DNA of 64,000 nucleotides from a virus: positions 1 through 64,000 of the IMG/VR virus record IMGVR_UViG_3300028800_000092. One strand, written 5' to 3'. Shown piece after piece: positions 8,755 through 58,703 of this stretch. The translations under genes were made by a program, and so were the position numbers. The number at the start of each line of letters is the position of its first letter. Position 1 is the stretch's first letter. The notes beneath the pieces were generated by a model that was not told the DNA's origin, made no database searches, and saw only the letters and a program-made list of their open reading frames with translations.

Positions 8755-9099
8755 ATGAATAACGTGATTGAAGTTAGCGGTTCTCCGACTCCACTACCTG
8801 AATTGACCCCGGACTTGAAGGACTCCCTTCGGAGCCTACAGTTTCATCCGGGATTTGTGTATCTCTTGACCCGGTTGCGCCTAGAGCGCGCACAACTTCG
8901 CAAATGCCTAGAGCAGGGGTATCAGCTAGAGCACGGGGCGCTACGTCATCTCCAGGCCGGGGTACATTATACCGGTTACATTGAGGACACTCTGCTGTCC
9001 CTGACCGCTACCCCCGCTCCTCCGAAGCGCGACGCTACACTGAATGAACTCGAACTCTTCAATAAGGTACGTGAAAACCTTGAACTCGTCGGAGCGTAA
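8755..9099 (+). CDS. Hypothetical protein between portal and phosphatase
   Basis: The gene begins immediately after the portal stop (TAAATG). The 114-residue product is helical, with a leucine-rich centre ('FVYLLTRLRLERAQLRKCL') and an acidic C-terminus. It overlaps the next gene by 29 bases if that gene starts at 9071. It may be a small connector or scaffold-associated protein, but this is position-based. Confidence 0.6.
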   Translation: MNNVIEVSGSPTPLPELTPDLKDSLRSLQFHPGFVYLLTRLRLERAQLRKCLEQGYQLEHGALRHLQAGVHYTGYIEDTLLSLTATPAPPKRDATLNELELFNKVRENLELVGA

Positions 9100-9721: not shown

Positions 9722-9763
9722 CACCCCTACACAATAGGGTATTTCCACACAATGGAGCAATGA

Positions 9764-10633: not shown

Positions 10634-10663
10634 ATGCTTGGTATCTCACTTAAAGGAACTGTA

Positions 10664-37009: not shown

Positions 37010-37155
37010 TATTTCCCTCTCTTAGGTTCATGGCATCGGCACTTACACAGCGGTTCAATAACCGTAAGCGACCGACTGTTATAGTTAAGTATACGTCCGT
37101 CACATAGTTCACAGTGCCCGTCTTCACACGGGCGGCTAATTTCTCTACTTACCAT
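37009..37155 (-). CDS. Small Cys-rich zinc-binding protein
   Basis: ATG 37155 overlaps the end of the polymerase gene by 11 bases and gives 48 residues. 'CEDGHCELC' and 'CKCRCH' supply six cysteines and one or more histidines, enough for one or two zinc sites. It may bind DNA or RNA next to the polymerase, but that is position only. Confidence 0.6.
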   Translation of the reverse strand: MVSREISRPCEDGHCELCDGRILNYNSRSLTVIEPLCKCRCHEPKRGK

Positions 37156-45885: not shown

Positions 45886-46056
45886 TTAACCGCCGTAGTC
45901 CAGCGTCCGGCCACCCCGAAAATATGCCTCTTGGGCTTCGCAGATTCCGTTGTAGATAAGTTCGTAAAGCTCGTCAACAGAGAGGTCCACGCTGTAAAAA
46001 ACCCCCACGGCATCCGTAGCGATACGCCGCGCAATAGTATCTGCGGAACTACTCAC
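45886..46056 (-). CDS. Hypothetical protein, 56 residues
   Basis: GTG 46056 overlaps the upstream stop (GTGA) and has GGTGAGGG upstream, so it is preferred to the open frame to 46119. The product is acidic and helical ('DLSVDELYELIYNGICEAQ'). It is the last gene of the amidoligase operon before the operator-like array. Confidence 0.58.
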   Translation of the reverse strand: MSSSADTIARRIATDAVGVFYSVDLSVDELYELIYNGICEAQEAYFRGGRTLDYGG

Positions 46057-46214
46057 GCCCTCACCGCCCCCAGGTGCGCATCGGGCACGGTAGGCTTCGG
46101 ACGCACCACTGGCGCACAATCACACGGCGTCTCTATGTCGTAGAACTGATGGCACTTGGAGCAGACTTCGAGTCGTCCTTTCCAATTAACGGGAATTCCA
46201 GCAGTGATTCGCAT
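46053..46214 (-). CDS. Small zinc-ribbon protein
   Basis: From ATG 46214, with GAGGAGGGG 13 bases upstream, the product has 53 residues including 'VCSKCHQFYDIETPCDC', a four-cysteine cluster. It overlaps the upstream gene by 82 bases in another frame, so one of the two starts may be wrong. The GTGA coupling to the next gene supports it. Confidence 0.5.
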   Translation of the reverse strand: MRITAGIPVNWKGRLEVCSKCHQFYDIETPCDCAPVVRPKPTVPDAHLGAVRA

Positions 46215-46429
46215 GGTTGTGGGCGGTCCCCTCCTCGGGACTTGGGCTTGTGGCCGATGTGGTAATGGAGTCCGTACGGACACTTGTAGACCTGTAGGGG
46301 CCTAGTGGGCCGAGTGTCATGCTCGGCTGTGGCCTTGAGGATAGTCTCCGCGTGGGACAATGTAGAGTACTGGCGCTTACGGAAGCAGCAGGTTCGAAAG
46401 TGCCAATACTTGTGTTTGGGGGAGATCAT
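46133..46429 (-). CDS. Basic protein with a phage zinc-type motif
   Basis: The 98-residue product starts at an ATG overlapping the upstream stop (ATGA). It has 'RTCCFRKRQYSTLSHAE' and 'LQVYKCPYGLHYHIGHK', the C-terminal pattern of small phage proteins with a Cys/His site. It is basic and may bind nucleic acid. Function is unknown. Confidence 0.6.
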   Translation of the reverse strand: MISPKHKYWHFRTCCFRKRQYSTLSHAETILKATAEHDTRPTRPLQVYKCPYGLHYHIGHKPKSRGGDRPQPCESLLEFPLIGKDDSKSAPSAISSTT

Positions 46430-46590
46430 ATACCTGCACCGGACTCGTTTAGGAGACACTCGGCATAGCCGGCGTCGTGGCCTTGACAGTACCCGTCGTC
46501 AAAAATCGCTTGGACTAACGCCTTTATTTCCTCAGCGGACCTACGAGTAAGTATCGCTTCAGCAATAGCGTTCCATGCCTCTTTGTTCAC
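46426..46590 (-). CDS. Small acidic helical protein, 54 residues
   Basis: GTG 46590 overlaps the amidoligase stop (GTGA) and the frame ends in ATGA with the next gene. The product has 'AIAEAILTRRSAEEIKALV' and 'YCQGHDAGYAECLL'. Overlap at both ends supports expression. No family is recognised. Confidence 0.55.
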   Translation of the reverse strand: MNKEAWNAIAEAILTRRSAEEIKALVQAIFDDGYCQGHDAGYAECLLNESGAGI

Positions 46591-47405
46591 ATCAACACCT
46601 TCCACGCTTCACGAAAGTCTACATCAACCGGAAACTGAACGCTCTTGACACCTACACCTAGAACCCGCTCCGAAACCCGCTTCGCATTAACGTCGTCCCC
46701 GAAGTACTCGAATATACGGCGGAGACGCATGTAGCCTGGCCGGAGACCAAGGGCATCAAGGGCCGCTTGTGGGTCAACAGCGCAGAGCTTGGCACCTGTG
46801 AGGCATAGGAACGTAGTCTTGGGATGAAAGAGCCAAGAGGCCATTGTACGATACTCAGTACGAAAAGGGGGCTGCGGTAGGTAGCCCCCTGCTCCTGGTA
46901 CACGTACATCTCCAAACCTCCCATACCCGTGCATCTCGCCCCGACGGTGCTCAGACTCTTCGCGGGGGAGAATATCCAGCGTCTCTAGACACTTAGTGAA
47001 CTTGTCAAGCGCCTTGACACGGAGGTTATGTTGCGTGGAAAACACACGCATGTCATCGTGTTCATAGGGCGTCAAGTCCAGATGCACATGCCCCCCGATG
47101 GGCATTTGGCGGTACATGCGATTTGGGTTAATTAACGCTCGTGCTTGCCATTTAGGGAGAGCTCCCGCTCGTAGCTTTCCGATACCCTCCGCTTGAAGCG
47201 GCTCCGAGAGAATAATGCGCTTGAGTCGTAATGTCAACGTCCGGGTGTCCTTACTCGGCTCCGGGTGCAGCTCAGCCACATCCCCTCCGTGGTCAATGCC
47301 TATAGGGCCATCGTGGTCCATTGGCAAGACCAGTAGCGCTCCCGCCTTATCGTAGGCCACGAACTCCGGGTCACAACCGACTAGAAATTTATTTAACAGC
47401 GCCAA
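46587..47405 (-). CDS. COOH-NH2 (amido)ligase, phiEco32 type 2-like, copy 1
   Basis: This 272-residue enzyme has the marks of the glutamine-synthetase-like ligases described in phiEco32-like phages: 'GCDPEF' at 10-15, 'VAELHPEP' at 43-50, 'GGHVHLD' at 104-110 and 'FRTEYRTMASWL' further on. Acidic and His residues in these blocks should bind ATP-Mg. The family is predicted to join a carboxylate to an amine with ATP. TTG 47405 follows GAGGGAA and overlaps the sigma gene by 17 bases. Confidence 0.8.
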   Translation of the reverse strand: MALLNKFLVGCDPEFVAYDKAGALLVLPMDHDGPIGIDHGGDVAELHPEPSKDTRTLTLRLKRIILSEPLQAEGIGKLRAGALPKWQARALINPNRMYRQMPIGGHVHLDLTPYEHDDMRVFSTQHNLRVKALDKFTKCLETLDILPREESEHRRGEMHGYGRFGDVRVPGAGGYLPQPPFRTEYRTMASWLFHPKTTFLCLTGAKLCAVDPQAALDALGLRPGYMRLRRIFEYFGDDVNAKRVSERVLGVGVKSVQFPVDVDFREAWKVLM

Positions 47406-47907
47406 GTAATTCCCTCACTTTCGAGCGCATACGCGATAACCGCTGGTACACGGTGTCTATATTAATCCCGAGCCTCTCTGCGATGTCCTGCGCCGTATAG
47501 CCACAGACAACGGAGTCGAACAGGTCCCGGTCATAGTCCGAGAGCTGTTTACGTATGTCGTCCGTCAAGAGCCCGAGTTCAAGTTCATTCCAGTTCAAGG
47601 CCGGAGCATCTACTTCAAGCTGATCGGTAACGGAGTCCTGTTGCTCTCGGTACGCGTCACGGACCTTGTTCATAACGAGCGCATGGTACCAAGTGCGGAA
47701 CTTGCTCAGACCCGTCCAGGCTATAGGGTGCAGGAGTACATATACCGCGCAATTGTTCGCAATGTCCTGTGTCTTCTCGTAGCCGAGGCTCGAATAACAT
47801 AGGTTCTTTGCGTAGACCCGGAGTTCAGATACGAGCCGCCGTTCAATGTCCGGTGTACGTTCATCGCGCCAGGCTATAAAGAGGGCGTCCTCTAATTGTT
47901 CGGGCAC
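47389..47907 (-). CDS. ECF-like phage sigma factor
   Basis: This 172-residue protein has a sigma region 2 at about 20-80 ('YEKTQDIANNCAVYVLL', 'KFRTWYHALVMNKVRDAY') and a region 4 helix-turn-helix at about 120-165 ('AQDIAERLGINIDTVYQRL'), with no region 1.1 or 3. It should redirect host RNA polymerase to phage promoters, as the phiEco32 sigma does. It lies inside the amidoligase operon, after a zinc-ribbon protein. The likely target motif is at 242-276, 40990-41044 and 44484-44538. Confidence 0.85.
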   Translation of the reverse strand: MPEQLEDALFIAWRDERTPDIERRLVSELRVYAKNLCYSSLGYEKTQDIANNCAVYVLLHPIAWTGLSKFRTWYHALVMNKVRDAYREQQDSVTDQLEVDAPALNWNELELGLLTDDIRKQLSDYDRDLFDSVVCGYTAQDIAERLGINIDTVYQRLSRMRSKVRELLGAVK

Positions 47908-48369
47908 TTATGTCTCCTCTTCATATAGCATAGTGAGTATTGGCTCGTCCTCTTCGGCTGTAGAGACTACGTCTTCATTGAGTTCGTAGTCTTCAAGGTC
48001 AAGGTCGATCTCCCCGCGTGCGAGGCACATACAACAAATGTTTTCATATGAATCGCTAGCGCAAGAGAGACATATATCCTTGCCGCAAACAGGGCACTTT
48101 AGCTCTGCATGGTGCTCGCAGCCGGGAGTGCTACAGAAGGCCTTGTCGCCTTTAACAATGACTTTAGCGTCAAGGATAAGGGCGTCTTGCTCCGCTTCGA
48201 GACACTCCGGGCAAGCGAATTGGGTCAAGGGCATATCGTCACGGGCGATTTCTGTAGGAGTAATAACGGTTCCGTGATACCCGCAGTGAAACTTTTTGGT
48301 CCGAGGGTGATACTCTACGAACTCGGTGCCAGGGAGGATTATAGAGGGTTTTACGGGAAAGTAGGTCAT
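47908..48369 (-). CDS. Multi-zinc-ribbon protein next to sigma
   Basis: This 153-residue protein has 'FACPECLEAEQ', 'FCSTPGCEHHAELKCPVCGK' in parts, and 'ICLSCAS', 'ICCMC', a cross-brace-like set of cysteines and histidines, then an acidic C-terminus. Its stop lies directly before the sigma start. A role as a sigma partner or anti-sigma is possible by position alone. Confidence 0.65.
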   Translation of the reverse strand: MTYFPVKPSIILPGTEFVEYHPRTKKFHCGYHGTVITPTEIARDDMPLTQFACPECLEAEQDALILDAKVIVKGDKAFCSTPGCEHHAELKCPVCGKDICLSCASDSYENICCMCLARGEIDLDLEDYELNEDVVSTAEEDEPILTMLYEEET

Positions 48370-48965
48370 TATAGACCATCCTCGTCACCGGGGTTATTCC
48401 AAGGCCAATTGTTAGGAGCGGGGGCCGGGTCATATTGAACGGCGAAGTCTGCGAGGCCTTGTGCCTGCGCTTGATATGGCACAAAAGGCGGCTCTGGTGC
48501 GTTTCCTTGAGCCATATTACCCGCGTTATAAAGGACCCTTCGAGCCCGTTCTACTTGTGCCGCCACATTCCTATCTCTTTGAGGGCGATAAGCAAGGGGA
48601 GGATAGTCCCCGGCTATGACTCTACGTACGAGGGGCATGTTCAATTTCAAGTGTGCGTGCTTCGGTTTCTTGTGCGCTCCACGTAGAACGCCAAGTGCAC
48701 TTCGCTTCGCTAGGTATCGGCTACGGTTCCTATGGGTCCCACGGGGCTCTATATAAATAGAGAGCCGGGCGGGGCCGTTTAAGCGCATTTGCTCCGCGTA
48801 CGTCTTACAGGCTTTGAACGTGGATACGATACGTTCCTTCATGGTAGCGCCATTGCTGGCAGCTATACCGTAGTCTAGCCGAAATTGCTTGAGCCGGGTC
48901 TTGGCGAAGGAGCCAAGATAGATTTGACCGTTAAGGTATTCGAGAACGTATCGTGTTTTGGTCAT
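48369..48965 (-). CDS. Basic protein with a Pro/Ala/Gln-rich tail
   Basis: This 198-residue protein has a basic N-terminal two-thirds ('RSRYLAKRSALGVLRGAHKK') that may bind nucleic acid and a low-complexity tail with Pro, Ala, Gln and Trp. The stop overlaps the next start (TAATG). I find no family. Confidence 0.58.
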   Translation of the reverse strand: MTKTRYVLEYLNGQIYLGSFAKTRLKQFRLDYGIAASNGATMKERIVSTFKACKTYAEQMRLNGPARLSIYIEPRGTHRNRSRYLAKRSALGVLRGAHKKPKHAHLKLNMPLVRRVIAGDYPPLAYRPQRDRNVAAQVERARRVLYNAGNMAQGNAPEPPFVPYQAQAQGLADFAVQYDPAPAPNNWPWNNPGDEDGL

Positions 48966-49217
48966 TTATTTGATTCCAGCGGCCCTCTCGCGTGGGGCGG
49001 GTTGGTTGCGCTCTGGATGATGCCAGCAGGGCTTAACGTCGTCGCAGTTCTTGTCGAGGTAATCCTTGAAGCAGGGGTTGCAAAGCACCACTGTTCCTGT
49101 ATTAGTAGTTTCGCCCCCACAATGACGACAGTGGTTCATTGGTGGGGCGGGTTGGGGGCTAGGAAGGGCCCGCCCATTGCCATCTACATCGTTTCCGTCC
49201 ACATCCTTGTATGCCAC
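48966..49217 (-). CDS. Small zinc-ribbon protein
   Basis: GTG 49217 overlaps the ATP-grasp stop by one base (TAGTG), with GAGGGG upstream. The 83-residue product has 'HCRHCGGETTNTG', 'LCNPCFKDYL' and 'CWHH', a likely zinc ribbon of phage type. It is coupled to the ligase but its role is unknown. Confidence 0.62.
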   Translation of the reverse strand: MAYKDVDGNDVDGNGRALPSPQPAPPMNHCRHCGGETTNTGTVVLCNPCFKDYLDKNCDDVKPCWHHPERNQPAPRERAAGIK

Positions 49218-49960
49218 TACTGTCCCTTCCCCTCTCCGTTCCTCTTTGGATACCCGTTTCTTACCCACTTCGCTATGCTATCAGCAAGTCCCGTAAGCCC
49301 TTGTCTAGGACCTTCAACACCTGGAGCGGTGTTGACCTCAAGGACGTAATAAGCTCCATCAAATCCTTGAAGGATATCTGCTGCCCCGAAATCGAGTCCA
49401 AGCGCATCCACTGCCTTAGCACCGATTGCACGTAGGGCCTCCGGAGTTCCCGGAGCAATGTCAAAGGCGAAGCCGTTGTCGTAATTGGCACCAACTCGCT
49501 TGCCAAGTTGTTCGGGATGCTTAAGGACTTTTTCATAGACTGCCTTTACCGTTCTCCTGAACGCCCAGACACGATACTCTCGCTGACGTGGAATGTACTG
49601 CGTGAAGAAATCTGACTGACGTTGACGCGCAGGCCATTCCACGTCTTTGCCCAGTATAGGTACAATGTCTTTTCCCCCGACATGGTGAAACTTCCTTCCC
49701 AAGAGCGGGAACTTAAGATTCTCTCCAGTCCTTGAGAAAGGAGGGACGCTAATTCCTTTTTCTCGCAGTCGCTCAAGTTGCGCATACTTGTTTAGCTCTC
49801 CTGCCCGTGCGTTTAGGCACGGGAGCTGACTGTGAATACGTACGCCATAGGAAACTACGGCATCTTCTTGGCCATCGCGGGCCAGTTTGAGGCCACGTTC
49901 AATGAGAAGGTCACGGAGTAAACGGCCTGTGGGGCCAGCGGCAGCGGTGAATTTAATCAT
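49217..49960 (-). CDS. ATP-grasp carboxylate-amine ligase
   Basis: This 247-residue protein has the ATP-grasp order: an N-terminal Rossmann-like part, 'LLGRKFHHVGGKDI' (about 85-100), 'FFTQYIPRQREYRVWAF' (about 137-153), and the C-terminal 'ADILQGFDGAYYVLEVNTA' whose Glu and Asn bind Mg-ATP. RimK-like enzymes of this class add amino acids to peptides or proteins. It lies between a GATase and amidoligases, so it probably works in the same pathway. Confidence 0.82.
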   Translation of the reverse strand: MIKFTAAAGPTGRLLRDLLIERGLKLARDGQEDAVVSYGVRIHSQLPCLNARAGELNKYAQLERLREKGISVPPFSRTGENLKFPLLGRKFHHVGGKDIVPILGKDVEWPARQRQSDFFTQYIPRQREYRVWAFRRTVKAVYEKVLKHPEQLGKRVGANYDNGFAFDIAPGTPEALRAIGAKAVDALGLDFGAADILQGFDGAYYVLEVNTAPGVEGPRQGLTGLADSIAKWVRNGYPKRNGEGKGQ

Positions 49961-50102
49961 AGATATCTGGATATGCCTCTTCTACATCTTCCAACGCCCG
50001 TAGGACAGGAGTGTCAATGTAGTTACAGTTGTCGTTAAGGGCGCTTGCGAGTGTCTTAAGTAACCGAAAGGCTTTAGTGTATCGACCCTCTGCTTCAGCC
50101 AT
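49953..50102 (-). CDS. Small helical protein, 49 residues
   Basis: ATG 50102 gives a product with 'YTKAFRLLKTLASALND' and 'PVLRALEDVEEAYPDIYD'. Its stop overlaps the ATP-grasp start by eight bases. Translational coupling is likely. Function unknown. Confidence 0.55.
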   Translation of the reverse strand: MAEAEGRYTKAFRLLKTLASALNDNCNYIDTPVLRALEDVEEAYPDIYD

Positions 50103-50111
50103 AAAGTTCTT

Positions 50112-50297
50112 TCAGTGTAGCTTTACCCACTGTTGCGCACGTTTCCAAACGCACGTTCGGTCATATACAATGGTGTCCGGCTCATCGCTCCCTTTCCCAC
50201 AACATTCACAGTGGTATTCGTACCCAAGAGCAAAGTCGTTGTGACTAATGGGGTGACAAACAGCTAGATCAGAAACTATGTTTGCTGCTTCGTTCAT
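50112..50297 (-). CDS. Small Cys/His protein, 61 residues
   Basis: The start overlaps the GATase stop (ATGA). 'YHCECCGKGSDEPDTIV' and 'CHPISHND' give a possible zinc site. The C-terminus ends in 'WKRAQQWVKLH'. It lies between the GATase and ATP-grasp genes. Function unknown. Confidence 0.6.
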   Translation of the reverse strand: MNEAANIVSDLAVCHPISHNDFALGYEYHCECCGKGSDEPDTIVYDRTCVWKRAQQWVKLH

Positions 50298-51292
50298 GCC
50301 CGTGCTTCCACGTGGCTAGTTTTAATGATTCCCTCTGGTTGAACTCCGAGCGGCTCTCCACAATGTGGACACTCCAGTTCATAAGTCTCGAACTCTTTCA
50401 TGGCATCGGGGATACGAACTGCCCGCTTGCACTTAGAGTTCAGGCAGAGCAGATGCTCAGGTAGTGCCTCCGTCTTCCACTTCTCACGGCCACGGCGGTA
50501 AATGTTATGCTGGTCATATATCGGCGCAGTGAAATGTGTATTGAACTCTAGGGCCTCATGCCACTCAAGCCCATTGTCTCCAATGATATGCGCCGAGTGA
50601 TTCGTCATGGTACTGAAGCCGACGTTCGGGATGTTCGGTTGGAACAGCATCTCATGCCATTTATACACAGGCCGTAGCGTTTGATGCAGGAACTGTTTCG
50701 TACTCGCGAAGCAGAACAGGTCAAGTTCTGGCACGGAGGCCCAGACCATAGGGTTCCCAGACCGGGCGAGTAGCAACTTACCGGGCTGCTCGACAGACAG
50801 AGCGGCGATGGCCCCGGAGCCCTTTAGCTTCCGAAGTTGCGCAATACCGTCCTTGGAGAGGGTACTGTCGTCAAGGAGCGCACGGATGATATCTGAATCC
50901 ACGGCCCCTTCACGTTCCAGTTTCAGTTCCCGGAACAGGATATAGTCGTTTTCGATCTTCCCATTGTGTACAACTACAGTTTTCCCCGTGAACAACGGAT
51001 GGTTGTTACGGTTGTCCTCCGGGTCGCCTTGGGTAGCAGCTCGGGCATGGAGTAGCACTGTCTGCGCCTGCTCCAAGTGGTCCGCCAGGAACTCATCGAA
51101 GCGCTTTTGAATGACAAGCTGCCACGCAGGCATGGGCTCTTTCATTACATATATTTCCCCGTTCGGGTACTGGAGAGCTATGCCGGCTGCGTTAGTACCA
51201 CGCTTCTGAAGCCCACAGAGCATGGTCTTTACATGAGTTGGAGTGATCGGAGGGGCCTCTCCGAAACGTCGAAAACCACCGATGCCACACAT
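50294..51292 (-). CDS. Class II glutamine amidotransferase with a zinc ribbon
   Basis: The 332-residue protein starts 'MCGIGGF', where Cys2 is the N-terminal nucleophile. The GATase II marks follow: 'LLHARAATQG' (about 82), 'NNHPLF' (about 98), 'VVVHNGKIEN' (about 107) and 'VDSDIIRALL'. It should release ammonia from glutamine. The C-terminal part has a zinc ribbon ('CLNSKCKRAV', 'LECPHCGEPLG') in place of a synthetase domain, so the ammonia acceptor is on a partner such as the amidoligases or ATP-grasp. Confidence 0.85.
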   Translation of the reverse strand: MCGIGGFRRFGEAPPITPTHVKTMLCGLQKRGTNAAGIALQYPNGEIYVMKEPMPAWQLVIQKRFDEFLADHLEQAQTVLLHARAATQGDPEDNRNNHPLFTGKTVVVHNGKIENDYILFRELKLEREGAVDSDIIRALLDDSTLSKDGIAQLRKLKGSGAIAALSVEQPGKLLLARSGNPMVWASVPELDLFCFASTKQFLHQTLRPVYKWHEMLFQPNIPNVGFSTMTNHSAHIIGDNGLEWHEALEFNTHFTAPIYDQHNIYRRGREKWKTEALPEHLLCLNSKCKRAVRIPDAMKEFETYELECPHCGEPLGVQPEGIIKTSHVEARA

Positions 51293-51447
51293 TACTTTGA
51301 ACGCTCCTTAACCTTTGCCATGTAGGCAGAGTAGTTTTCATGGACAGCCTTTTTATATACACGCTTTGCCGACTTACGGTTACGCATGTAGTACACGGCC
51401 TCCGTGACTTCGTCCCATACGACTACCAACCACTTAGCGTTCTTCAT
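51292..51447 (-). CDS. Small basic protein, 51 residues
   Basis: The stop overlaps the GATase start (TAATG) and the start overlaps the upstream stop (ATGA). The product is a beta strand followed by basic helices ('YYMRNRKSAKRVYKKAV'). It may be a nucleic-acid binder or a partner of the GATase. No family known. Confidence 0.58.
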   Translation of the reverse strand: MKNAKWLVVVWDEVTEAVYYMRNRKSAKRVYKKAVHENYSAYMAKVKERSK

Positions 51448-51635
51448 ATTTGCCACCAACGCTTTCTGAGCGGGACCTTGACTACAGCCTTAGATTTCGC
51501 TTGCATGGCCTTTCCGTATCCGTCCGTGAACTCTATTACCGTTGAAATGGTAACCTTTGTACCGGGCTTTACCGATACGTCCGCCATGATTTCATTATGT
51601 AAAGCGGCCGAACCCAATACTTCATTAAGTGTCAC
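51444..51635 (-). CDS. Small hypothetical protein, 63 residues
   Basis: GTG 51635 overlaps the amidoligase stop (GTGA) and the frame ends ATGA with the next. The sequence has short strands and a basic end ('VVKVPLRKRWWQI'). Coupling in the operon suggests a common pathway. The role is unknown. Confidence 0.58.
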   Translation of the reverse strand: MTLNEVLGSAALHNEIMADVSVKPGTKVTISTVIEFTDGYGKAMQAKSKAVVKVPLRKRWWQI

Positions 51636-53119
51636 GCAAAAATCTCCTCTCGACCTACATACGTATGCTTACACGCTACGGCCTCTTGCTTCATCTTCCC
51701 GAGCGCCGCTTGCCACTCTTTGTACGACTCCAGTTTCACGTCCTTGATCTTCCAGACCGGGAACATGCCACTACCGATCATTAACTCTATGACCTGTTTA
51801 TGGTTTCCCTGATTGTTAACCGCAATCCCGTTCCAATCCCCGCCTACATATATAGAGTCCTTCGGGACCCGCTCGCGCCAATCTTGCGGCAGGAGATTCG
51901 CCCACTGACGACCTATGGCTATTAGATACGGGTCCTCTAAATGCTTCCCTGTTACATGAAACCCGCCACCATACGTGCACAGGTCACAGACGATTTCACC
52001 TATGCCCTTGATACCACGGGTCTCTACAGTGTCAAGTAAAGATACATAGCCCTTCGGGAGTTCCGTAGGTGTCCAAGTAGCGGGGCGAAGCGCACCTACA
52101 GCTAAAGGTGCTCCGTGAGCCAAGTGCTCCCATAGCTCCGTTAACGTATCTTTATGGCCAGTAATGGCCCCCGGAACCACTGTAACCTGTGGTGCGTGCG
52201 GCCGCTTCCCGTCCATGCCCCATCGAGGCCGAAAGTCGCCCCCTATATGCTTCGGCATCCCTAGGCGTTGAAGGGCACCATATGCCAGCAAGGCATCATC
52301 GTCTAACCCTCGGTAATACCTGAGTAGGTTAGTAACATGGGTGCAACCTTCAACGCCACGAGCATGGTAGAATAACTCCGGGTCATACACCGCGATCTTA
52401 GACAGAACTAGGTGTAAATACGCTATCCACGGGCTATCCAACCAACTTGGGAACGTGCGATATTCGTAACCGTAGGGTTGGGGACGAACGTCCCCAGGGC
52501 GACCGTACCTTTGATTATGGGCATCTCCAGCCCTGCGCATGTCCATTTCATGGGCCGGGTACATACCGCTCTTTTCAAGGGATTCCGCTAAGCTATCAAG
52601 GCCCTTGACTTCATTGTTGTACATGACCTTGTTCCGACGGCCTAGGTGAACATGACCGCCAAGGCCATCTTCTTGCAAGTACGGCCCGCAGACCCAATTA
52701 TATGCGTTTGTCTCTGGGACTGTAGCCGACATCCAGCGGAACGTGTCAAGGATACTGGCCAAGACGGCGAGAGAGTTCTTGTTCGGAGCGGGGCGAATCT
52801 CTACGAGTCGTCCATTGTTGTCGGCTCCATAGGCACGCCCAGCCTTCATTTTGAAGAGGTTCGCGTCTATACGGCGACCGTTCAGAAGCTCTGTGAATAT
52901 GAACTCCGGGTCCGCGCCAAGCATAAAGTGGTTGATGAGTCGGGGGATAGCCCGGTATTCCTGTAACTTAGGCTCTCGGTAGAACCGCCCCAGCCAAGAG
53001 CGAACTTCACTGTCTGTGACTTGCCAACCGAGGGGGTACAGTTTCTGTAGGTCTCGAAAGTCCTTGATTCCATTGAGAACGATGTCCCGGTAGAACCCGC
53101 GCTTGCGTTCTGAGTTCAC
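51632..53119 (-). CDS. COOH-NH2 (amido)ligase, phiEco32 type 2-like, copy 2
   Basis: From GTG 53119, which overlaps the upstream stop, the product has 495 residues, the longest of three paralogues. 'GADPEF' at 68-73, 'LVEIRPAP' at 105-112, 'LGGHVHLG' at 153-160 and 'YEYRTFPSWL' mark the catalytic domain. About 60 residues precede it and a C-terminal half of about 200 residues lacks the motifs and might bind the substrate. The enzyme should use ATP to form an amide bond. Confidence 0.82.
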   Translation of the reverse strand: MNSERKRGFYRDIVLNGIKDFRDLQKLYPLGWQVTDSEVRSWLGRFYREPKLQEYRAIPRLINHFMLGADPEFIFTELLNGRRIDANLFKMKAGRAYGADNNGRLVEIRPAPNKNSLAVLASILDTFRWMSATVPETNAYNWVCGPYLQEDGLGGHVHLGRRNKVMYNNEVKGLDSLAESLEKSGMYPAHEMDMRRAGDAHNQRYGRPGDVRPQPYGYEYRTFPSWLDSPWIAYLHLVLSKIAVYDPELFYHARGVEGCTHVTNLLRYYRGLDDDALLAYGALQRLGMPKHIGGDFRPRWGMDGKRPHAPQVTVVPGAITGHKDTLTELWEHLAHGAPLAVGALRPATWTPTELPKGYVSLLDTVETRGIKGIGEIVCDLCTYGGGFHVTGKHLEDPYLIAIGRQWANLLPQDWRERVPKDSIYVGGDWNGIAVNNQGNHKQVIELMIGSGMFPVWKIKDVKLESYKEWQAALGKMKQEAVACKHTYVGREEIFA

Positions 53120-53631
53120 AGTACCAATGCCTCCGCCTCGACCCATTTCTTGTACGGCAGCACGTGCTCGGCCATTTTGACCTTCTCAAGCCCAGAGTAC
53201 ACAAAATGCTTCTTTCCCTTGAGTGTCACATGCTTTAGGTAATGCTTTACATTTAACCAGCGCCACGGGTCAAGTAAGCTCCCGTAGGCATAGTAGTACC
53301 GGAGCGCGTTCGTATCTGCGTAGCCACGGAAGTTTATAGCGTAGGCCTTTGGAAGTATGGCAAAGAACTCCCGAAGCATATTCTTCCGGTCAATTTCCTT
53401 GACAAGGACACTCCGAACCGTATTATCCTCTGTCCAAGCGTGCCGGATTTTCTTGAACACTGTAGCGTTCGGCTTGCCAAAGTAGAGCCAAGCCTTCTTT
53501 TTTCCTTGATACGTAATTGCTACCAGCACCCGAGTCGGGTACTTCCCTGCAAAGGGCGCTACTTTCACTGGGTGCTCGCCCGGCAGTCGCATGGGGAGCT
53601 TGTTCGCGCCAACCAACGTGTACTTTCTCAC
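53116..53631 (-). CDS. Hypothetical protein of the amidoligase operon
   Basis: This 171-residue basic protein overlaps both neighbours (GTGA each side). It has 'VLVAITYQGKKKAWLYFGK' and a Tyr-rich centre ('ALRYYYAYGSLLDPWRW'). It is possibly an alpha/beta fold. Its fixed position between two operon enzymes suggests a partner role. No motif identified. Confidence 0.6.
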   Translation of the reverse strand: MRKYTLVGANKLPMRLPGEHPVKVAPFAGKYPTRVLVAITYQGKKKAWLYFGKPNATVFKKIRHAWTEDNTVRSVLVKEIDRKNMLREFFAILPKAYAINFRGYADTNALRYYYAYGSLLDPWRWLNVKHYLKHVTLKGKKHFVYSGLEKVKMAEHVLPYKKWVEAEALVL

Positions 53632-54269
53632 CTGAAATCCCTCTCTGTAAACGAAGCACGCATAACTATGCGCTCTTCCTTTGGACCGATAATGAAATCA
53701 AGGTCCTTGTAGCTCGCTTCAATAGCGAACTTCCACGTCCATTCACAGTTCTCTGAACCGCAGAGCGGCAACCCCCACTTATGCTTCGCGGTCACTACAT
53801 GACACACAATGCAGCGTCGGAGCTTCGATAGCTCCTTGTACGCTAACTGTAACCGTCGTGCGCAAGAACGATCTGCGAACGTGCTTCCGAGCGCTTCGAG
53901 CTTGTGTATCCGTCGCTGCTCGGGACTGTAAACAGTTTGTAAACAGAACCTACAAACTGCGATAGTACCTTGTGGATTTGGGCTTCCTTGCCAATAGCTG
54001 TATTCGGTGGCCGCTAAATTACCTGCCGGTACGCCCCTCTGAAAGTAGGCGGGAAGTGTCTGGGGAAGCAGGGGTTGTTCCAATGAACGATTGTACCGCA
54101 TCCACTCCCGATTCTGTCGGTAGCGGTCAGATATCGGAACCAGTCCCGTCATCATGATTGGGGGCTTAGGCTCAGCCCAGAGCACTAGCTTGTCACGCCT
54201 GTTGCCCGCGGGCTGCCAAATATTGGCTAGGAACCAACCGGGGGGAGTTACATATACAGGCTCAGGCAC
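53628..54269 (-). CDS. Putative zinc-binding protein, 213 residues
   Basis: GTG 54269 overlaps the upstream stop. The C-terminal half has 'VCRFCLQTVY' and 'RRCIVCHVV' with 'LCGSENCEW', three Cys pairs that probably bind zinc, after an N-terminal proline-rich region. It may bind DNA or RNA. No family is recognised. Confidence 0.6.
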   Translation of the reverse strand: MPEPVYVTPPGWFLANIWQPAGNRRDKLVLWAEPKPPIMMTGLVPISDRYRQNREWMRYNRSLEQPLLPQTLPAYFQRGVPAGNLAATEYSYWQGSPNPQGTIAVCRFCLQTVYSPEQRRIHKLEALGSTFADRSCARRLQLAYKELSKLRRCIVCHVVTAKHKWGLPLCGSENCEWTWKFAIEASYKDLDFIIGPKEERIVMRASFTERDFR

Positions 54270-54420
54270 GTCGTTCCCTCATTATCTGTACGAGATATCG
54301 ACGGTTATCATAGGCAAGGGGTACCGAGTCAAAAGCACCCTCAGCTTGTTTGAGAGTGTCGAACCACTCTACAATATGCTCAGAGCCGTTGTCTGTGATG
54401 ACCGCCCAGTTCTCGTCCAT
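54262..54420 (-). CDS. Small protein, 52 residues, first of the coupled operon
   Basis: ATG 54420 has a strong ribosome site (AAAGGAAGGAG). The product is alpha/beta ('WAVITDNGSEHIVEWFDT', 'YLVQIMRERRA') and resembles small phage proteins in general form. Its stop overlaps the next start. It appears to be the first gene of the operon that continues to 45886. Confidence 0.6.
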   Translation of the reverse strand: MDENWAVITDNGSEHIVEWFDTLKQAEGAFDSVPLAYDNRRYLVQIMRERRA

Positions 54421-54454
54421 ACATTTACTCCTTCCTTTCAAATGGAAATCCCTC

Positions 54455-54484
54455 TATCCGGGGCCTATGTGAGCACCCCGGATA
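54455..54484 (-). promoter_or_regulatory. Stem-loop upstream of the coupled operon
   Basis: TATCCGGGG and CCCCGGATA form a perfect 9-bp stem around a 12-base loop, about 35 bases before the first gene of the operon. The absence of a T-run argues against a complete terminator on this strand. It may attenuate transcription or stabilise the mRNA 5' end. The 170 bases to its right hold only ORFs of 22 codons or fewer. Confidence 0.45.
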
Positions 54485-54649
54485 TGCACATCTCTGTGAA
54501 ACGCTAGAGCCAACCTGAACATGTCGGATAGCGTAGGGTGAGTGGCAGGATATTTTAACGGACAAATGACAAGTGGTTACACAGAAACCTGTGGGCCTAG
54601 ACACAAGCCCCCGTGCAGCATAGTCATCCCTGCCCCCTCGCAGTTAGGT

Positions 54650-54796
54650 CTACGAATAGACGCCCTGCTTGGCCGGACGCCGATACTTTGGCGTCAATGT
54701 GTGTACTGAACCCAGTTGATGTTGTCGAACGTCGGCTAAGGACGCAAACTTACGTTTACACCCGTTGCACGCTACCTTCTTGGCCTTCTGCGCCAT
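54650..54796 (-). CDS. Small C2H2-like zinc-finger protein
   Basis: The start overlaps the upstream stop (TAATG). The 48-residue product has 'ACNGCKRKFASLADVRQH' followed shortly by 'VH', a C2H2 finger arrangement, with a basic N-terminus and C-terminus. Single-finger proteins of this type can bind DNA, RNA or protein in phages. It is rare to see a C2H2 finger this clear. Confidence 0.65.
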   Translation of the reverse strand: MAQKAKKVACNGCKRKFASLADVRQHQLGSVHTLTPKYRRPAKQGVYS

Positions 54797-55122
54797 TACG
54801 TGGCCTTCTTGACGCCGACGCCCCAGAGGGTGATTTCATATTCGGCCTCGCCCTTGGTCTTGTCAGCGTGCTGTCCGGGCATGGTGCAGAGTGGCACAAA
54901 GCCCCGCTGCTCCAGTTCCCTGATAGCCAATGTTTGGTACGGCACAGTTGTGGCAAAGACAGGCAGCTTCTCTTTCGTGAACGCACTCGTACGTTCCTTA
55001 ATCGAAAGCGCCATGTCATATGCCTGTTTGCGTGTTACCCCGTCCTTGGCGACGGCGGGCTCAGACAAATTCCCCATAATGAGCGCGCCACAACAGAACG
55101 GGAAGAGGGACATATTTGGCAT
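54796..55122 (-). CDS. FPxCC-type protein, paralogue 1
   Basis: ATG 55122 behind AAGGAAGGAG gives 108 residues. The N-terminus 'LFPFCCGALIMGNL', the central Ala/Lys-rich helix and the C-terminal 'FVPLCTMPGQHADKT' and 'EITLWGVGV' resemble the product at 58700-59161 ('FPSCCSISIL', 'ATFQTCHGDYNCTLWGFRV'). The two are probably paralogues. The conserved Cys pair and Trp suggest a fold of its own. Function unknown. Confidence 0.62.
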   Translation of the reverse strand: MPNMSLFPFCCGALIMGNLSEPAVAKDGVTRKQAYDMALSIKERTSAFTKEKLPVFATTVPYQTLAIRELEQRGFVPLCTMPGQHADKTKGEAEYEITLWGVGVKKAT

Positions 55123-55330
55123 ACGTGTACTCCTTCCTTGAATTGATTTCTCTCCAGTTTTAAGCGACCACGTTGTCACTTGCGCTGAGCGCACAGTTCG
55201 TACCTGTACCAGTAACCGAAGGTATCTCTCCTCCGCGATTCCGGTTTCTAGCTCTGCCCTCGTAGGCTATGCGAGAACTTTCAATTACACTTGGTTGAGT
55301 GTGCTAGAGTTTTCTGGAGAGAATTGCATA

Positions 55331-55401
55331 GGAGACACCCAGAGCAGTTGAATCCAAACACGGCGAGTTTTGCCGCTTGCTGCGATCCTTAGGGTGTCTC
55401 C
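55331..55401. ncRNA. Putative structured RNA, 71 nt, element B
   Basis: GGAGACACCC and GGGTGTCTCC pair perfectly over 10 bp and enclose a CGGC/GCCG hairpin with a seven-base loop. The size is tRNA-like, but there is no T-arm consensus. It lies in a 540-base gene-free stretch (55123-55661) with the tRNA-like sequence at 55437-55507. Strand is not decided because the terminal stem is perfect on both. The rest of the gap shows no convincing ORF. Confidence 0.4.
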
Positions 55402-55436
55402 CGATAATATAGACCATCGCTGGAACCCGACTTCAA

Positions 55437-55507
55437 GCACGATGACGGATTTGAACCGCCGACCTTTACCCTAACGAGTAATGCTCTGCCATCTGAGCTA
55501 ATCTGCC
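55437..55507 (-). tRNA. tRNA-like gene, degenerate
   Basis: The minus strand has a good D-arm (GCTC, loop AGATGGCA, GAGC) preceded by TA, a T-arm GGCGG, loop TTCAAAT, CCGTC, and a TTAC/GTAA anticodon stem around an eight-base loop (TCGTTAGG). The acceptor pairs at only four of seven positions and no CCA is encoded. I cannot assign an anticodon with confidence. It could be a decayed tRNA or a non-decoding tRNA-like RNA. Confidence 0.45.
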
Positions 55508-55661
55508 GTCCATCAGTTATGCCTTCAATGAATTCCCGATACTCTAGGAACTCTCCAGCGTTCCAGCAATGGCCCTCGTGGCCTACCTTCTCCGAATGGA
55601 TGCATGTACTTGGATAAGAAATACAGTCTTCCGTATACGGTACTCGGCTTGGCCTTGAGCT

Positions 55662-55892
55662 TTACGAATCGAACTTAACTTCGCAGGTCAGCCTGTTTTC
55701 GACTACAATTTCGCCGACTTTCTTTACGAGTACGTAAGTGCGCTCGAAGTCGTCCCCCTGATCCCGATAGTCGTCCGTAGCCGCTTGTTTGGCCCTCTCC
55801 AAGGTGGTGCGCTCACCGTTTCCGACAAGTTCGTCGTTGCTCTCGTCAATCACGTAAAACGGCCCTGTTACTGTTGTCTTTGCTATTGCCAT
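55662..55892 (-). CDS. Small protein, 76 residues
   Basis: This product has 'TGPFYVIDESNDELVGNGER' in parts, a helical centre and C-terminal strands. It has the appearance of a small alpha/beta phage protein. It lies between two gene-poor segments. Function unknown. ATG 55892 follows AAAGAGAGGG. Confidence 0.6.
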   Translation of the reverse strand: MAIAKTTVTGPFYVIDESNDELVGNGERTTLERAKQAATDDYRDQGDDFERTYVLVKKVGEIVVENRLTCEVKFDS

Positions 55893-56008
55893 AACTGTAA
55901 CCCTCTCTTTTTCTCTGCGTTACTGGCGCAGCCCAGAACTGGTGGAGACTAGCGAGAGCGACTCGCAGAGGCTCACGTTCGCACGCACCCTATTCGTCCC
56001 CAAACTTC

Positions 56009-56088
56009 CCCCACCCTAGGACTTGCACCTAGGCACTCTCATTGTATGTACAGCAAGAGGCCGCTCTCAACGCCAGAGGGCGATGGGC
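56009..56088 (-). tRNA. tRNA-like sequence, weak
   Basis: The minus strand has a T-arm-like CTAGG, loop TGCAAGT, CCTAG, and possible acceptor strands GCCCATC and GGTGGGG that pair at six of seven positions. The D-arm and the anticodon stem are poor and the middle could hold GTA in its loop. I treat it as a decayed or chance tRNA-like sequence. The surrounding gap (55893-56150) shows no convincing gene. Confidence 0.25.
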
Positions 56089-56150
56089 TGGTTACCAATT
56101 ACTATCCATGAGCGGTTTTCTACGTAGCCTAGTGGGGTTTTTACTACACC

Positions 56151-56228
56151 TCACAAAGCGAGGTTAGCGCTTCTCCAAGCAAGAATGTACACAATTAGTA
56201 GGGCCGCCCCGAGAGCTACTCCTGCCAT
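56151..56228 (-). CDS. Possible 25-residue membrane peptide
   Basis: ATG 56228 lies within the end of the upstream gene. The product is a single hydrophobic helix ('GVALGAALLIVYILAW') with a polar end. No ribosome site is clear. Similar tiny membrane peptides occur in other phages. Confidence 0.35.
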   Translation of the reverse strand: MAGVALGAALLIVYILAWRSANLAL

Positions 56229-56389
56229 TGCGTCTGCTCGTAGGCCCGATGCGCCCGACTCGGATGGTACAGTGTCGCCAAGCGCCCCATGACCTGTAGC
56301 ATAGAGGCTGCACTAAATGGTACATCAGCGGCCTCTCGAATCAATCTGTCCTCTGCTGCCATCTCTGGCGTCAGTTCCTGTTCTCTCAT
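56216..56389 (-). CDS. Small helical protein, 57 residues
   Basis: AAGGAG stands seven bases before ATG 56389, so I prefer it to the open frame to 56575, which crosses another gene. The product has 'TPEMAAEDRLIREAADV' and 'MLQVMGRLATLYHPSRAH'. Function unknown. Confidence 0.55.
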   Translation of the reverse strand: MREQELTPEMAAEDRLIREAADVPFSAASMLQVMGRLATLYHPSRAHRAYEQTQWQE

Positions 56390-56429
56390 GAAGTAACTCC
56401 TTAACTTGTTTCTCAAGGAGCGTGACCCG

Positions 56430-56519
56430 CTACTCAAGTTGTCTAGCTGTTTGACCTGCAACAGCCGCAGCCCATTCGGCTCGCCGTACCTTCTTACGCG
56501 CGTTCCAATCCGTTGCCAT
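56430..56519 (-). CDS. Very small basic protein, 29 residues
   Basis: GGAGGGG stands well placed before ATG 56519. The product 'MATDWNARKKVRRAEW' followed by an Ala-rich helix looks like a real basic peptide. It precedes the 57-residue gene by 40 bases. Confidence 0.45.
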   Translation of the reverse strand: MATDWNARKKVRRAEWAAAVAGQTARQLE

Positions 56520-56689
56520 AAATGAATCCCCTCCGTTCCACCCATCGCAAAGCGTGTCCGATTCAACCGTATCACGTAAAGTTAGTCCATCCCGGCCACG
56601 GTACGTAGTTAAACGGGATTCCCGTAAAAGCAATCACCCCTAGAGGCACCGTGCTTCCAAGACTTTCTATCTCTACATGCTACAACGAA

Positions 56690-56905
56690 TTACAGGAACA
56701 ACCAAACGCCCTCTTTCAAGATCGCCCTGGCCCATAGGGCCACAAGCCACTCCTGTAATCCTAGTCGAATGTGTTTCGCTTCGTTAGATGAAACGGAGGG
56801 AAACTTATTGAAAATTAACTGTAAGTGCGCCAGTGCCGGAGTTCTCTTGAAGCAACCGTAACCGAACCGGTTGCTCAGGCTGCGTTCCTCCGCCGTAAAT
56901 TTCAA
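56690..56905 (-). CDS. Possible alternative 71-residue protein
   Basis: A frame from TTG 56905 overlaps the upstream stop (TTGA). The C-terminal part ('HIRLGLQEWLVALWARAIL') looks like an amphipathic helix. It overlaps the gene at 56805-56912 in another frame, so probably only one of the two is translated. Its ribosome site is farther away, so it is the weaker of the two. Confidence 0.3.
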   Translation of the reverse strand: MKFTAEERSLSNRFGYGCFKRTPALAHLQLIFNKFPSVSSNEAKHIRLGLQEWLVALWARAILKEGVWLFL

Positions 56906-56912
56906 TTTTCAC
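56805..56912 (-). CDS. Small phage protein, 35 residues
   Basis: GTG 56912 has AGGAG five bases upstream and gives 'MKIEIYGGGTQPEQPVRLRL', then a short strand-rich end. The 'PVRLRL' element with alternating hydrophobic residues resembles small phage proteins of this kind. It overlaps the end of the zinc-binding gene by 11 bases. Confidence 0.5.
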   Translation of the reverse strand: MKIEIYGGGTQPEQPVRLRLLQENSGTGALTVNFQ

Positions 56913-57387
56913 GTTTCTCTCCTAATCTTGATACGTCCCCCGGAATCCAACGCCCTTCTTCATAACTCCAGTGCCCTTGCGGGCCTCTCTGGGGGTACTC
57001 TTGAAATGTTGTCCAAGCCTCGTCATCCCAACCCTTACGTGCAGTTACGTTCTTCGCCTTGGAACCAACCTTCCGTGCTTCCTGCGTCTGCGCTATGAAG
57101 CACTCTTTCCTCCCGCAATAGCGTACATTGCTCTTGAAGAAGAACGCTGGACGGCCGCAATGTGTACACGCGGCCAGTACTACGAAGCCCCGCCCCAAGC
57201 ACAACGGACAACAGTCATCTTGTCCCTGTAGCTTCGAATTCACGCGCCCACCGTCTACACATATCGGACAAGGGGCGGTTTCGGGGGCATATATTGCTAT
57301 AACCCCCTTCTTGCCCTTCTTTGTCTTGCTCTTTATGAACCGTAGAGCACGAATCCGAGCACTCCGAAGCACGTATGGCTCTCGCAT
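56902..57387 (-). CDS. Zinc-finger protein, DnaJ-like cysteine repeats
   Basis: ATG 57387 overlaps the amidoligase stop (TAATG) and gives 161 residues. It has 'APCPICVDGGRVNSK', 'CCPLCLGRGF', 'CTHCGRPAFFF' and 'YCGRKEC', four Cys pairs in the style of DnaJ-type central domains. It may bind proteins or nucleic acid. The coupling to amidoligase 3 suggests a partner. Confidence 0.68.
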   Translation of the reverse strand: MREPYVLRSARIRALRFIKSKTKKGKKGVIAIYAPETAPCPICVDGGRVNSKLQGQDDCCPLCLGRGFVVLAACTHCGRPAFFFKSNVRYCGRKECFIAQTQEARKVGSKAKNVTARKGWDDEAWTTFQEYPQRGPQGHWSYEEGRWIPGDVSRLGEKREN

Positions 57388-58703
57388 TACGGTTTCATGA
57401 CCTCCGTGCCACGAACCATCCAATGGTTACTACCGTTCACAGGCTGTAAGTTTTTCTCCGGGTCTGCGAAGGCCTTGGCCGGGATACCCTCGAACATGGC
57501 TTGTAGGGCAGCCTGTCGAGCGATCTTGGACCTCTCAGATGTTCCATTGTTCGGGAACATCCAAAGTAACAGCCCCTCAATCATCGGCATATTGCGCCCA
57601 AGTATACTGTGCGCCATGCTCACGTTCGCCGTGTTGATGGTCTCTTCGACTTCCATGTCTGTGGTTAGCCACGAGTCAAAGTACCCCTGCAAGTACATGT
57701 ACAGACTCGCTCTCGCGAGGTCTAGTGTCAAGTATCCCACAGTCGAATTCAAACACCACTGATTCGAGAGCACACGATACTCAAGGCCGTAGCTAGTCTT
57801 TCTATATTCCCCGGCCTTCCCATACAGTGTCCTGCGCTTTGGGTTGTCCACATGCTGAAACATGCCCACGGACATGATACCGAGTATCGCGTCCACGGCC
57901 TTCACTATGTCTGCCGCGTTGCTGTCTGTGATTCCCTTGTGCCCGAAGTGAATATGGCCCCCTGCGGGCCTCATGTTAATGGAATACGGGTCAATGACCG
58001 GCTCCCATTCATGTCCGTAGGCGTTCAGGCTCGGCTTGCAACCGAACTGTACGTATTCCTGCGGGTACTTGATAAGCTGCTCGGTCGGCACTTCAATGAC
58101 CGATCTACTTGAAAGCCGTGCCTGTGGCCGGAGCTTTCGGACTTCACGGAGCGTTCCTAGAAGCGCCTGCTCGATGCCATAGACTACGACATCCAAGCAC
58201 ATAGCTGTGTCTTTGAACCGCGCTTCTGCCTGTAGGCCGTCCCAGTACGCAGACGAATGTAGCATCGCAGGAGTCAAGCTCCCGTCCCGAAGGGTAGCCG
58301 ACAGCTCTATAGGTGCTTCCTTACTCGGTAGCACAGTCCATGCGGGAATTATAGTCCCGCCCTCTTCAAGGAAGAACTCGGGGTCAGAGCCAATCGTTAC
58401 ACTTTCGTGTTGAAGGAGCAACGCCAGATTCTTAGTCCGTAGCGTATCCTTCTCTGTCTCTGTAAGCTCCCGAACATCCCGCTCATTGGTATCGAGTGGC
58501 TTATGGTACCGTGACCCTTTGCTGGAAGGGGGCACAATGCCCCCGCCAGTCCAAGGAAACACCAGCCCATTCGGTATCTGAACGAACTGCCGGTAATCTG
58601 TCCCACGGGGGCTCGCGTGACACTGCGTCGCGCACATGCCCATGTAGTCCAGGTGCTCTACGAGCGGTTCGCTCGCTTCCTTGAGCATCCAAGCTCTGTT
58701 CAC
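57387..58703 (-). CDS. COOH-NH2 (amido)ligase, phiEco32 type 2-like, copy 3
   Basis: This 438-residue protein has 'GSDPEF' at 105-110, 'LQAEARFKD' at 157-165, 'AGGHIHFG' at 247-254 and 'LEYRVLSNQW' further on, the same blocks as copies 1 and 2. About 100 residues precede the first block. It lies about 4.3 kb upstream of the operon with the other copies. Identity among the three is low outside the blocks, so they probably use different substrates. Confidence 0.82.
   Translation of the reverse strand: MNRAWMLKEASEPLVEHLDYMGMCATQCHASPRGTDYRQFVQIPNGLVFPWTGGGIVPPSSKGSRYHKPLDTNERDVRELTETEKDTLRTKNLALLLQHESVTIGSDPEFFLEEGGTIIPAWTVLPSKEAPIELSATLRDGSLTPAMLHSSAYWDGLQAEARFKDTAMCLDVVVYGIEQALLGTLREVRKLRPQARLSSRSVIEVPTEQLIKYPQEYVQFGCKPSLNAYGHEWEPVIDPYSINMRPAGGHIHFGHKGITDSNAADIVKAVDAILGIMSVGMFQHVDNPKRRTLYGKAGEYRKTSYGLEYRVLSNQWCLNSTVGYLTLDLARASLYMYLQGYFDSWLTTDMEVEETINTANVSMAHSILGRNMPMIEGLLLWMFPNNGTSERSKIARQAALQAMFEGIPAKAFADPEKNLQPVNGSNHWMVRGTEVMKP

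What the first reader, a model, noticed from the sequence alone, without database searches (positions are those of the whole stretch)
45886..58703. Amidoligase, GATase and ATP-grasp modification system in one phage
The sequence shows three glutamine-synthetase-like ligases (57387-58703, 51632-53119, 46587-47405), a class II glutamine amidotransferase (50294-51292) and an ATP-grasp ligase (49217-49960). All share DPEF, GGH(V/I)H and (L/E)YR motifs or the matching family motifs. Related sets are predicted in phiEco32-like phages to make peptide or amide modifications. Here there are three divergent ligase copies, a GATase fused to a zinc ribbon, and many coupled small proteins that could be partners or substrates. 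The product and substrate are unknown, which is what makes this the best candidate for an undescribed system.
Basis: partly seen in the sequence, partly recalled or inferred. Interest (0 to 1): 0.85.

Follow-up and report, generated by a model that had tools for sequence, protein, structure and literature searches.

The report
Three-ligase variant of phage amidoligase cassette
This virus carries a conserved operon of enzymes that join carboxylic acids to amines, a reworked version of a cassette already described in several groups of bacterial viruses whose product has never been identified; its job is most likely to alter a cell-envelope building block or similar molecule during infection.

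Summary
Three PF14395 (COOH-NH2) ligases, a GlmS-type class II glutamine amidotransferase (GATase) and a RimK/Ddl-like ATP-grasp ligase lie on one strand of a 65.7-kb virus record. Catalytic motifs are conserved across relatives.

The novelty claim is only partly right. The kind of cassette is known: LUZ24-, phiEco32- and Zobellviridae-type phages carry one PF14395 ligase, one Amidoligase_2 (PF12224) ligase, a GATase and an ATP-grasp, published as a hypothetical "peptidoglycan modification cassette". Its product is unproven.

What differs is a lineage-specific variant. Amidoligase_2 is absent from all 11 records of this lineage searched whole and present in all 10 comparison phages. Its place beside the GATase is taken by LigB, a divergent PF14395 ligase that also gave rise to LigC; LigA is the orthologue of the known ligase. 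A GATase search made without using the ligases recovered the same operon: LigA, two Zn-binding proteins, LigB and GATase co-occur in order in all 22 contigs, ATP-grasp in 21, LigC in 14.

Best reading: GATase plus LigB is a glutamine-dependent amidoligase; LigA, LigC and ATP-grasp add further amide bonds to a soluble carboxylate, most likely an envelope precursor. The enzymology is inferred, the substrate unproven.

The parts
57387..58703 (-). LigA: PF14395 GS/GCS-like ligase, orthologue of the single COOH-NH2 ligase of known phages; N-terminal extension
   Evidence: PF14395 8e-11, phrog_3815 9e-33; clade with Lig1 100/100; invariant D107-P-E109, E160, GGH250, R290/R301, E308-Y-R310 in 10 sequences
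51632..53146 (-). LigB: divergent PF14395 ligase with an extra C-terminal region; sits next to the GATase where other phages have Amidoligase_2 (internal start at 53119)
   Evidence: PF14395 9e-21; invariant D79-P-E81, E116-x-R118, GGH165-x-H167, R221, E228-Y-R230; AF2 model pLDDT 80.5, nearest solved fold YbdK
46587..47405 (-). LigC: shorter duplicate of LigB (PF14395)
   Evidence: PF14395 3e-13; {LigB,LigC} 100/100, LigC 99/99 and placed inside LigB; motifs conserved in 8 sequences; present in 14 of 22 contigs
50294..51292 (-). Class II glutamine amidotransferase (GlmS-type glutaminase) with C-terminal 4-Cys cluster
   Evidence: PF13522 9e-13; PDB profile match to GlmS 2e-23; MCGI start, HARAAT, NNHP, HNG and DSD motifs
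49217..49960 (-). ATP-grasp ligase, RimK/LysX/Ddl-like
   Evidence: phrog_2599 4e-21; AF2 pLDDT 88.4; Foldseek DdlB 1e-13, ArgX-LysW 3e-13, RimK 7e-13; invariant E128-x-R130, D195, E208-x-N210
56902..57423 (-). Zn1: DnaJ-like zinc-finger protein, overlaps the end of LigA; always follows LigA
   Evidence: Seven Cys and one Pro invariant in 10 loci; present in all 22 contigs
53628..54269 (-). Zn2: Cys/His-rich protein a short way upstream of LigB
   Evidence: C/H/W/G positions invariant in 10 loci; present in all 22 contigs
53116..53631 (-). Protein X, translationally coupled between Zn2 and LigB
   Evidence: 4-bp overlaps on both sides; homologues in 6 other lineage loci, L018-L023
58700..59161 (-). 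Short PxCC protein (GNAT-remnant-like), upstream of LigA
   Evidence: HMM family; weak two-way match to GNATs
54796..55194 (-). Second short PxCC (GNAT-remnant-like) protein
   Evidence: HMM family
47389..47907 (-). Sigma-70-like factor, overlapping the start of LigC
   Evidence: PF08281 6e-7; adjacent to LigC in L018-L023; a sigma-factor gene is annotated near the cassette in Zobellviridae too
51292..51635 (-). Two small ORFs (51444-51635 and 51292-51459) coupled between LigB and GATase
   Evidence: ORF overlaps of 4, 16 and 1 bp; not conserved in relatives

Best explanation
This is a lineage-specific variant of the phage amidoligase / GATase / ATP-grasp cassette. The GATase hydrolyses glutamine and passes ammonia to LigB, which activates a carboxylate with ATP and converts it to an amide. 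LigA (GCS/GS-like, orthologue of the canonical phage ligase), LigC (a LigB duplicate) and the RimK/Ddl-like ATP-grasp enzyme add amino acids or amines through further amide or isopeptide bonds. GNAT-type proteins and, in some relatives, gamma-glutamyl cyclotransferase may cap or edit the product. The genes lie next to replication genes and the enzymes look soluble, so they probably act in the cytoplasm during takeover. The likeliest substrate is a peptidoglycan or other envelope precursor, the hypothesis already published for this cassette. Shown: families, conserved motifs, operon and co-occurrence, absence of Amidoligase_2 and LigB in its place. Inferred: LigB-GATase coupling (about 0.7). 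Weakly supported: envelope substrate (about 0.35).
For: Families and motifs. Folds: ATP-grasp = DdlB/ArgX/RimK; LigB = YbdK-type carboxylate-amine ligase, then GS, PafA, GmaS. Order LigA-Zn1-Zn2-LigB-GATase conserved in all 22 contigs of the lineage, 18 of them found by GATase alone. PF12224 0/11 here versus 10/10 in known phages; PF14395 2-3 copies versus 0-1. Of 62 GATase loci outside the lineage, 37 hold Amidoligase_2 and in 31 it is the only ligase seen in the held DNA; Arthrobacter phage Wheelbite also shows just that pair in the stretch fetched. So the minimal unit is GATase + one GS-fold ligase, and LigB now fills that place. Translational coupling. Published peptidoglycan hypothesis.
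Against: No biochemical evidence for any member was found in the held library. Nothing in the sequence points directly at an envelope substrate. The host is unknown. Sequence-level comparison with YbdK gave no significant match, so catalytic assignment rests on motif order and a distant fold match (TM-score to target 0.43). LigC is absent from 8 of 22 contigs (about 3 of them cut near the end of the cassette), so it is not essential. Ammonia transfer between GATase and LigB was not tested structurally.
Confidence: 0.45

Rival explanations
1. Protein-modifying system: the ATP-grasp (RimK-like) and the GS-fold ligases attach amino acids or amide groups to a host or phage protein such as a ribosomal or RNA polymerase subunit, in the way RimK and PafA modify proteins.
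For: ATP-grasp fold neighbours include RimK and ArgX/LysX-LysW, which act on proteins. PafA-Pup ligase is among LigB fold matches. Zn1 and Zn2 are invariant partners that could be adaptors or targets. A sigma-like gene is coupled to LigC.
Against: DdlB and other small-molecule ligases match equally well. No conserved acceptor tail in Zn1 or Zn2. GATase and gamma-glutamyl cyclotransferase fit small peptides better (inference).
Confidence: 0.25
2. Auxiliary nitrogen or amino-acid metabolism: the enzymes raise nitrogen assimilation for phage growth.
For: Proposed for a planctomycete phage carrying amidoligase, GATase, a 'glutathione synthase' and GGCT genes (PMC10945688).
Against: GATase plus several ATP-using ligases consume glutamine and ATP rather than fix nitrogen (established chemistry of the families). 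The cassette is conserved as a gene set in phages of many hosts.
Confidence: 0.1
3. Nucleotide or DNA hypermodification, or synthesis of a soluble anti-host or anti-defence peptide.
For: The cassette lies beside DNA replication genes. ATP-grasp enzymes that mature ribosomal peptides (PsnB, CdnC) are among the fold neighbours.
Against: No dNMP-modifying enzyme was recognised among the large ORFs that were scanned. No conserved short precursor peptide was found in the cassettes.
Confidence: 0.12

Closest known systems
Phage 'peptidoglycan modification cassette' of RIO-1/PSA-HP1, phiEco32, LUZ24, tf, PA11 and CW02 (PMC5498523, citing Hardies 2013; source of the idea Iyer et al. 2009, not held here)
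   Same: PF14395 ligase, second GS-fold ligase, class II GATase, RimK-like ATP-grasp, often GGCT; same strand, next to replication genes
   Different: Those have one PF14395 and one PF12224 ligase. Here there are three PF14395 ligases and no PF12224, with Zn1 and Zn2 always present and no C26 hydrolase found
Zobellviridae cassettes (Klebsiella phage Klyazma, Pseudomonas phage O4, Salinivibrio phage CW02)
   Same: Lig1, GATase and ATP-grasp homologous to LigA, GATase and ATP-grasp here; a sigma-factor gene nearby
   Different: Different order (GATase before Lig1), Amidoligase_2 present, X protein unrelated
Minimal Amidoligase_2 + GATase pairs (Arthrobacter phage Wheelbite and many IMG/VR contigs)
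   Same: GATase next to one GS-fold ligase
   Different: Ligase is PF12224-type and no ATP-grasp is seen in the held DNA
YbdK / GCS2 carboxylate-amine ligases
   Same: Nearest solved fold of LigB; by eye, collinear E-x-E, E, HVH, R, ExR type motifs
   Different: No significant sequence similarity; LigB has an extra C-terminal region of unknown fold

Membership tests
PF14395 COOH-NH2 ligase | Profile match above gathering score | tested here: met
   Three ORFs at 50, 74.7 and 42.1 bits against a cut-off of 25
PF14395 COOH-NH2 ligase | Conserved acidic, His and Arg active-site-type motifs (DPE, E, GGHxH, R, EYR) | tested here: met
   Invariant in 8-10 homologues per ligase
GS/GCS carboxylate-amine ligase fold | Structural match to a solved member | tested here: met
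   LigB model to YbdK, E 1.7e-4, prob 1.00, TM-score to target 0.43; LigA and LigC not modelled
Class II glutamine amidotransferase | N-terminal catalytic Cys and GlmS-type glutamine site motifs | tested here: met
   MCGI start, HxRxxT, NNHP, HNG, DSD; GlmS profile 2e-23
ATP-grasp ligase | Fold and Mg-binding E-x-N / D residues | tested here: met
   Foldseek 1e-13 to DdlB; E208-x-N210 and D195 invariant
phiEco32/LUZ24-type cassette | PF14395 ligase + GATase + ATP-grasp in one gene cluster | tested here: met
   All present, order conserved within the lineage
phiEco32/LUZ24-type cassette | Amidoligase_2 (PF12224) as second ligase | tested here: not met
   0 of 11 lineage records, 10 of 10 comparison phages; replaced by LigB
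phiEco32/LUZ24-type cassette | GGCT (PF06094) | tested here: not met
   Absent from the window record; present in 6 of 11 lineage records and 7 of 10 comparison phages
Peptidoglycan-modifying function | Enzymes change muropeptide or precursor chemistry | not testable with these tools
   Needs infection or enzyme assay

The most novel reading that the evidence does not exclude
LigB, LigC, Zn1 and Zn2, with the short PxCC GNAT-remnant proteins as binding or carrier partners, form a pathway chemically distinct from the phiEco32-type cassette and make a product of a new kind, with Zn1 or Zn2 acting as a carrier or acceptor protein much as LysW does for LysX/ArgX.
Probability: 0.12. Interest if true: 0.75.

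Novelty: new variant of a known kind. Interest (0 to 1): 0.5.

Why it matters
Amide-ligase cassettes occur in phages of many hosts, and their product has stayed unknown since they were noticed in 2009. A lineage in which Amidoligase_2 has been swapped for a divergent PF14395 ligase while the GATase and ATP-grasp are kept shows which parts are interchangeable. It predicts that the GATase works with whichever GS-fold ligase sits next to it, so a two-protein assay (GATase + LigB, or GATase + Amidoligase_2) would test the first step.

Tried and rejected
Single-protein searches of viral contigs with GATase or ATP-grasp found nothing; alignments were needed. Amidoligase_2 as the hidden family of LigB or LigC: rejected (hhalign probabilities 0.2-3.3; PF12224 absent). 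Window protein X as homologue of the ~190-aa protein between the two ligases of known phages: rejected. GATase C-terminal cluster or Zn1/Zn2 as LysW-like carriers: only E 0.04 for one GATase tail, and no conserved terminal Glu. Small precursor peptides: none conserved in more than 3 of 14 loci; a first, more sensitive script timed out. Direct profile alignment to YbdK: no significant match. Host assignment: the genome-contig scan gave only two distant Paenibacillus chromosomal relatives.

Full report
1. Observation. The window is most of a 65,702-base IMG/VR virus record. Pfam and PHROGs assign LigA (57387-58703), LigB (51632-53146) and LigC (46587-47405) to PF14395, the GATase to PF13522, and the ATP-grasp to a RimK-like family. 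The DPE..GGHxH..EYR motifs belong to the three ligases; the GATase and ATP-grasp have their own motifs.

2. Operon. From 59161 down to about 46133 the genes are mostly coupled by short overlaps: 4 bp between Zn2, X, LigB and the next small ORF, 1 bp into the GATase, 17 bp between the sigma-like gene and LigC. There is one long gap between Zn1 and the second PxCC ORF.

3. Relatives. A LigB search found L004, and a pair alignment found nine more contigs. Most are 58-68 kb, with some shorter pieces and one of 125.6 kb. A second search used only the GATase alignment and returned 80 loci; the best 18 belong to the same lineage. A third LigB scan added two more contigs. In all 22 contigs, two of them nearly identical, LigA, Zn1, Zn2, LigB and GATase occur in that order on one strand. 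ATP-grasp follows in 21; the exception is a contig whose held DNA ends just after the GATase. LigC is present in 14.

4. Catalytic residues. Across 10 homologues LigA keeps D107-P-E109, E160, GGH250, R290, R301 and E308-Y-R310. LigB keeps D79-P-E81, E116-x-R118, GGH165-x-H167, R221 and E228-Y-R230. LigC keeps the matching set in 8 sequences. The ATP-grasp keeps E128-x-R130, D195 and E208-x-N210. The GATase keeps its N-terminal Cys and GlmS-type glutamine-site motifs; in a few rows the ORF start chosen by the script lies before or after the true one, so the invariance of the first residues is read from the motif, not from the row start.

5. Folds. The ATP-grasp model (pLDDT 88.4) matches DdlB, ArgX-LysW, RimK and PsnB. 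The LigB model (pLDDT 80.5, weak at the C-terminal end) matches YbdK best, then bifunctional glutathione synthetase, glutamine synthetase, PafA-Pup ligase and gamma-glutamylmethylamide synthetase. LigA and LigB profiles found no ligase relative in the PDB by sequence.

6. Comparison with known cassettes. Ten comparison phages carry Amidoligase_2 (PF12224) in 10 of 10 and PF14395 at most once. The 11 lineage records carry PF14395 two or three times and PF12224 never (four hits in some records are one ORF split in two). In the tree, LigA and the known ligase form one clade (100/100), and LigB and LigC another (100/100), with LigC placed inside LigB. Two contigs without LigC branch first within LigB, with modest support. 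LigB and LigC are not disguised Amidoligase_2. Elsewhere the minimal unit is GATase plus Amidoligase_2 (31 of 62 loci outside the lineage; Arthrobacter Wheelbite). LigB therefore appears to have replaced Amidoligase_2 as the GATase's partner. This is inference from gene order, not biochemistry.

7. Extra partners. Zn1 is DnaJ-zinc-finger-like and Zn2 is Cys/His-rich; both are in every contig. A family of GNATs with a PxCC motif, plus short proteins with the same motif that lack the acetyl-CoA loop, is scattered in the cassette. The link between short and full forms is significant for some members (5.9e-10 for one) and weak for others, so it is a lead. No conserved short peptide was found that would suit a precursor.

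8. Literature. The cassette has been described as a seven-gene 'peptidoglycan modification cassette' thought to block superinfection (PMC5498523; echoed in PMC10580990, and PMC11318856). Others propose nitrogen metabolism (PMC10945688). The primary source, Iyer et al. 2009, is not held. No experiment on the product was found in the held library.

9. Verdict. Observation confirmed. Interpretation partly supported: it is a new variant of a known, functionally unproven cassette, not an undescribed system. Most likely mechanism: glutamine-dependent amidation by GATase + LigB, followed or preceded by other ligations, on a cytoplasmic carboxylate, with an envelope precursor the best single guess.

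Noticed in passing
window 37145-39622: DNA polymerase A carries an N-terminal uracil-DNA-glycosylase-superfamily domain (PF03167, 1e-11) ahead of its exonuclease and polymerase domains.
   Followed up: no
window 9044-9721: A histidine-phosphatase-like protein (VVRHGETDLN motif) is encoded between the portal (6679-8754) and capsid (10634-11677) genes; by eye only, not searched.
   Followed up: no
L057, L081, L082: Virus contigs, two of them larger than 140 kb, hold another variant: two GATases, two LigC-like ligases and an ATP-grasp within about 9 kb.
   Followed up: partly
L029 9437-10864 and L030: Paenibacillus chromosomes encode a PF14395 ligase; in L029 it matches the whole family (276 bits) and lies between what looks by eye like a cotE-like spore-coat gene and mutS/mutL.
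   Followed up: partly
L016 7584-9005: Yersinia phage GN1 encodes a RimK ATP-grasp fused to a putative Zn-protease domain (PF05618), annotated as a structural protein.
   Followed up: no
L011 6988-7875 and 8849-9856: Stenotrophomonas phage StenR_269 has two related proteins (E 3e-20 to each other) beside its cassette, one annotated L-glutamine synthetase; no Pfam match for the one scanned (8849-9856) and no link to the other ligases was found.
   Followed up: partly
L004 16329-17285: An RNA ligase (PF09414, 6e-13) lies directly before LigC in the 125.6-kb relative.
   Followed up: no
L013 11465-13351 and L014 14235-16091: ATP-grasp proteins of Slicky01 and Proteus phage 3H10_20 have about 350 extra C-terminal residues with no Pfam match.
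   Followed up: no
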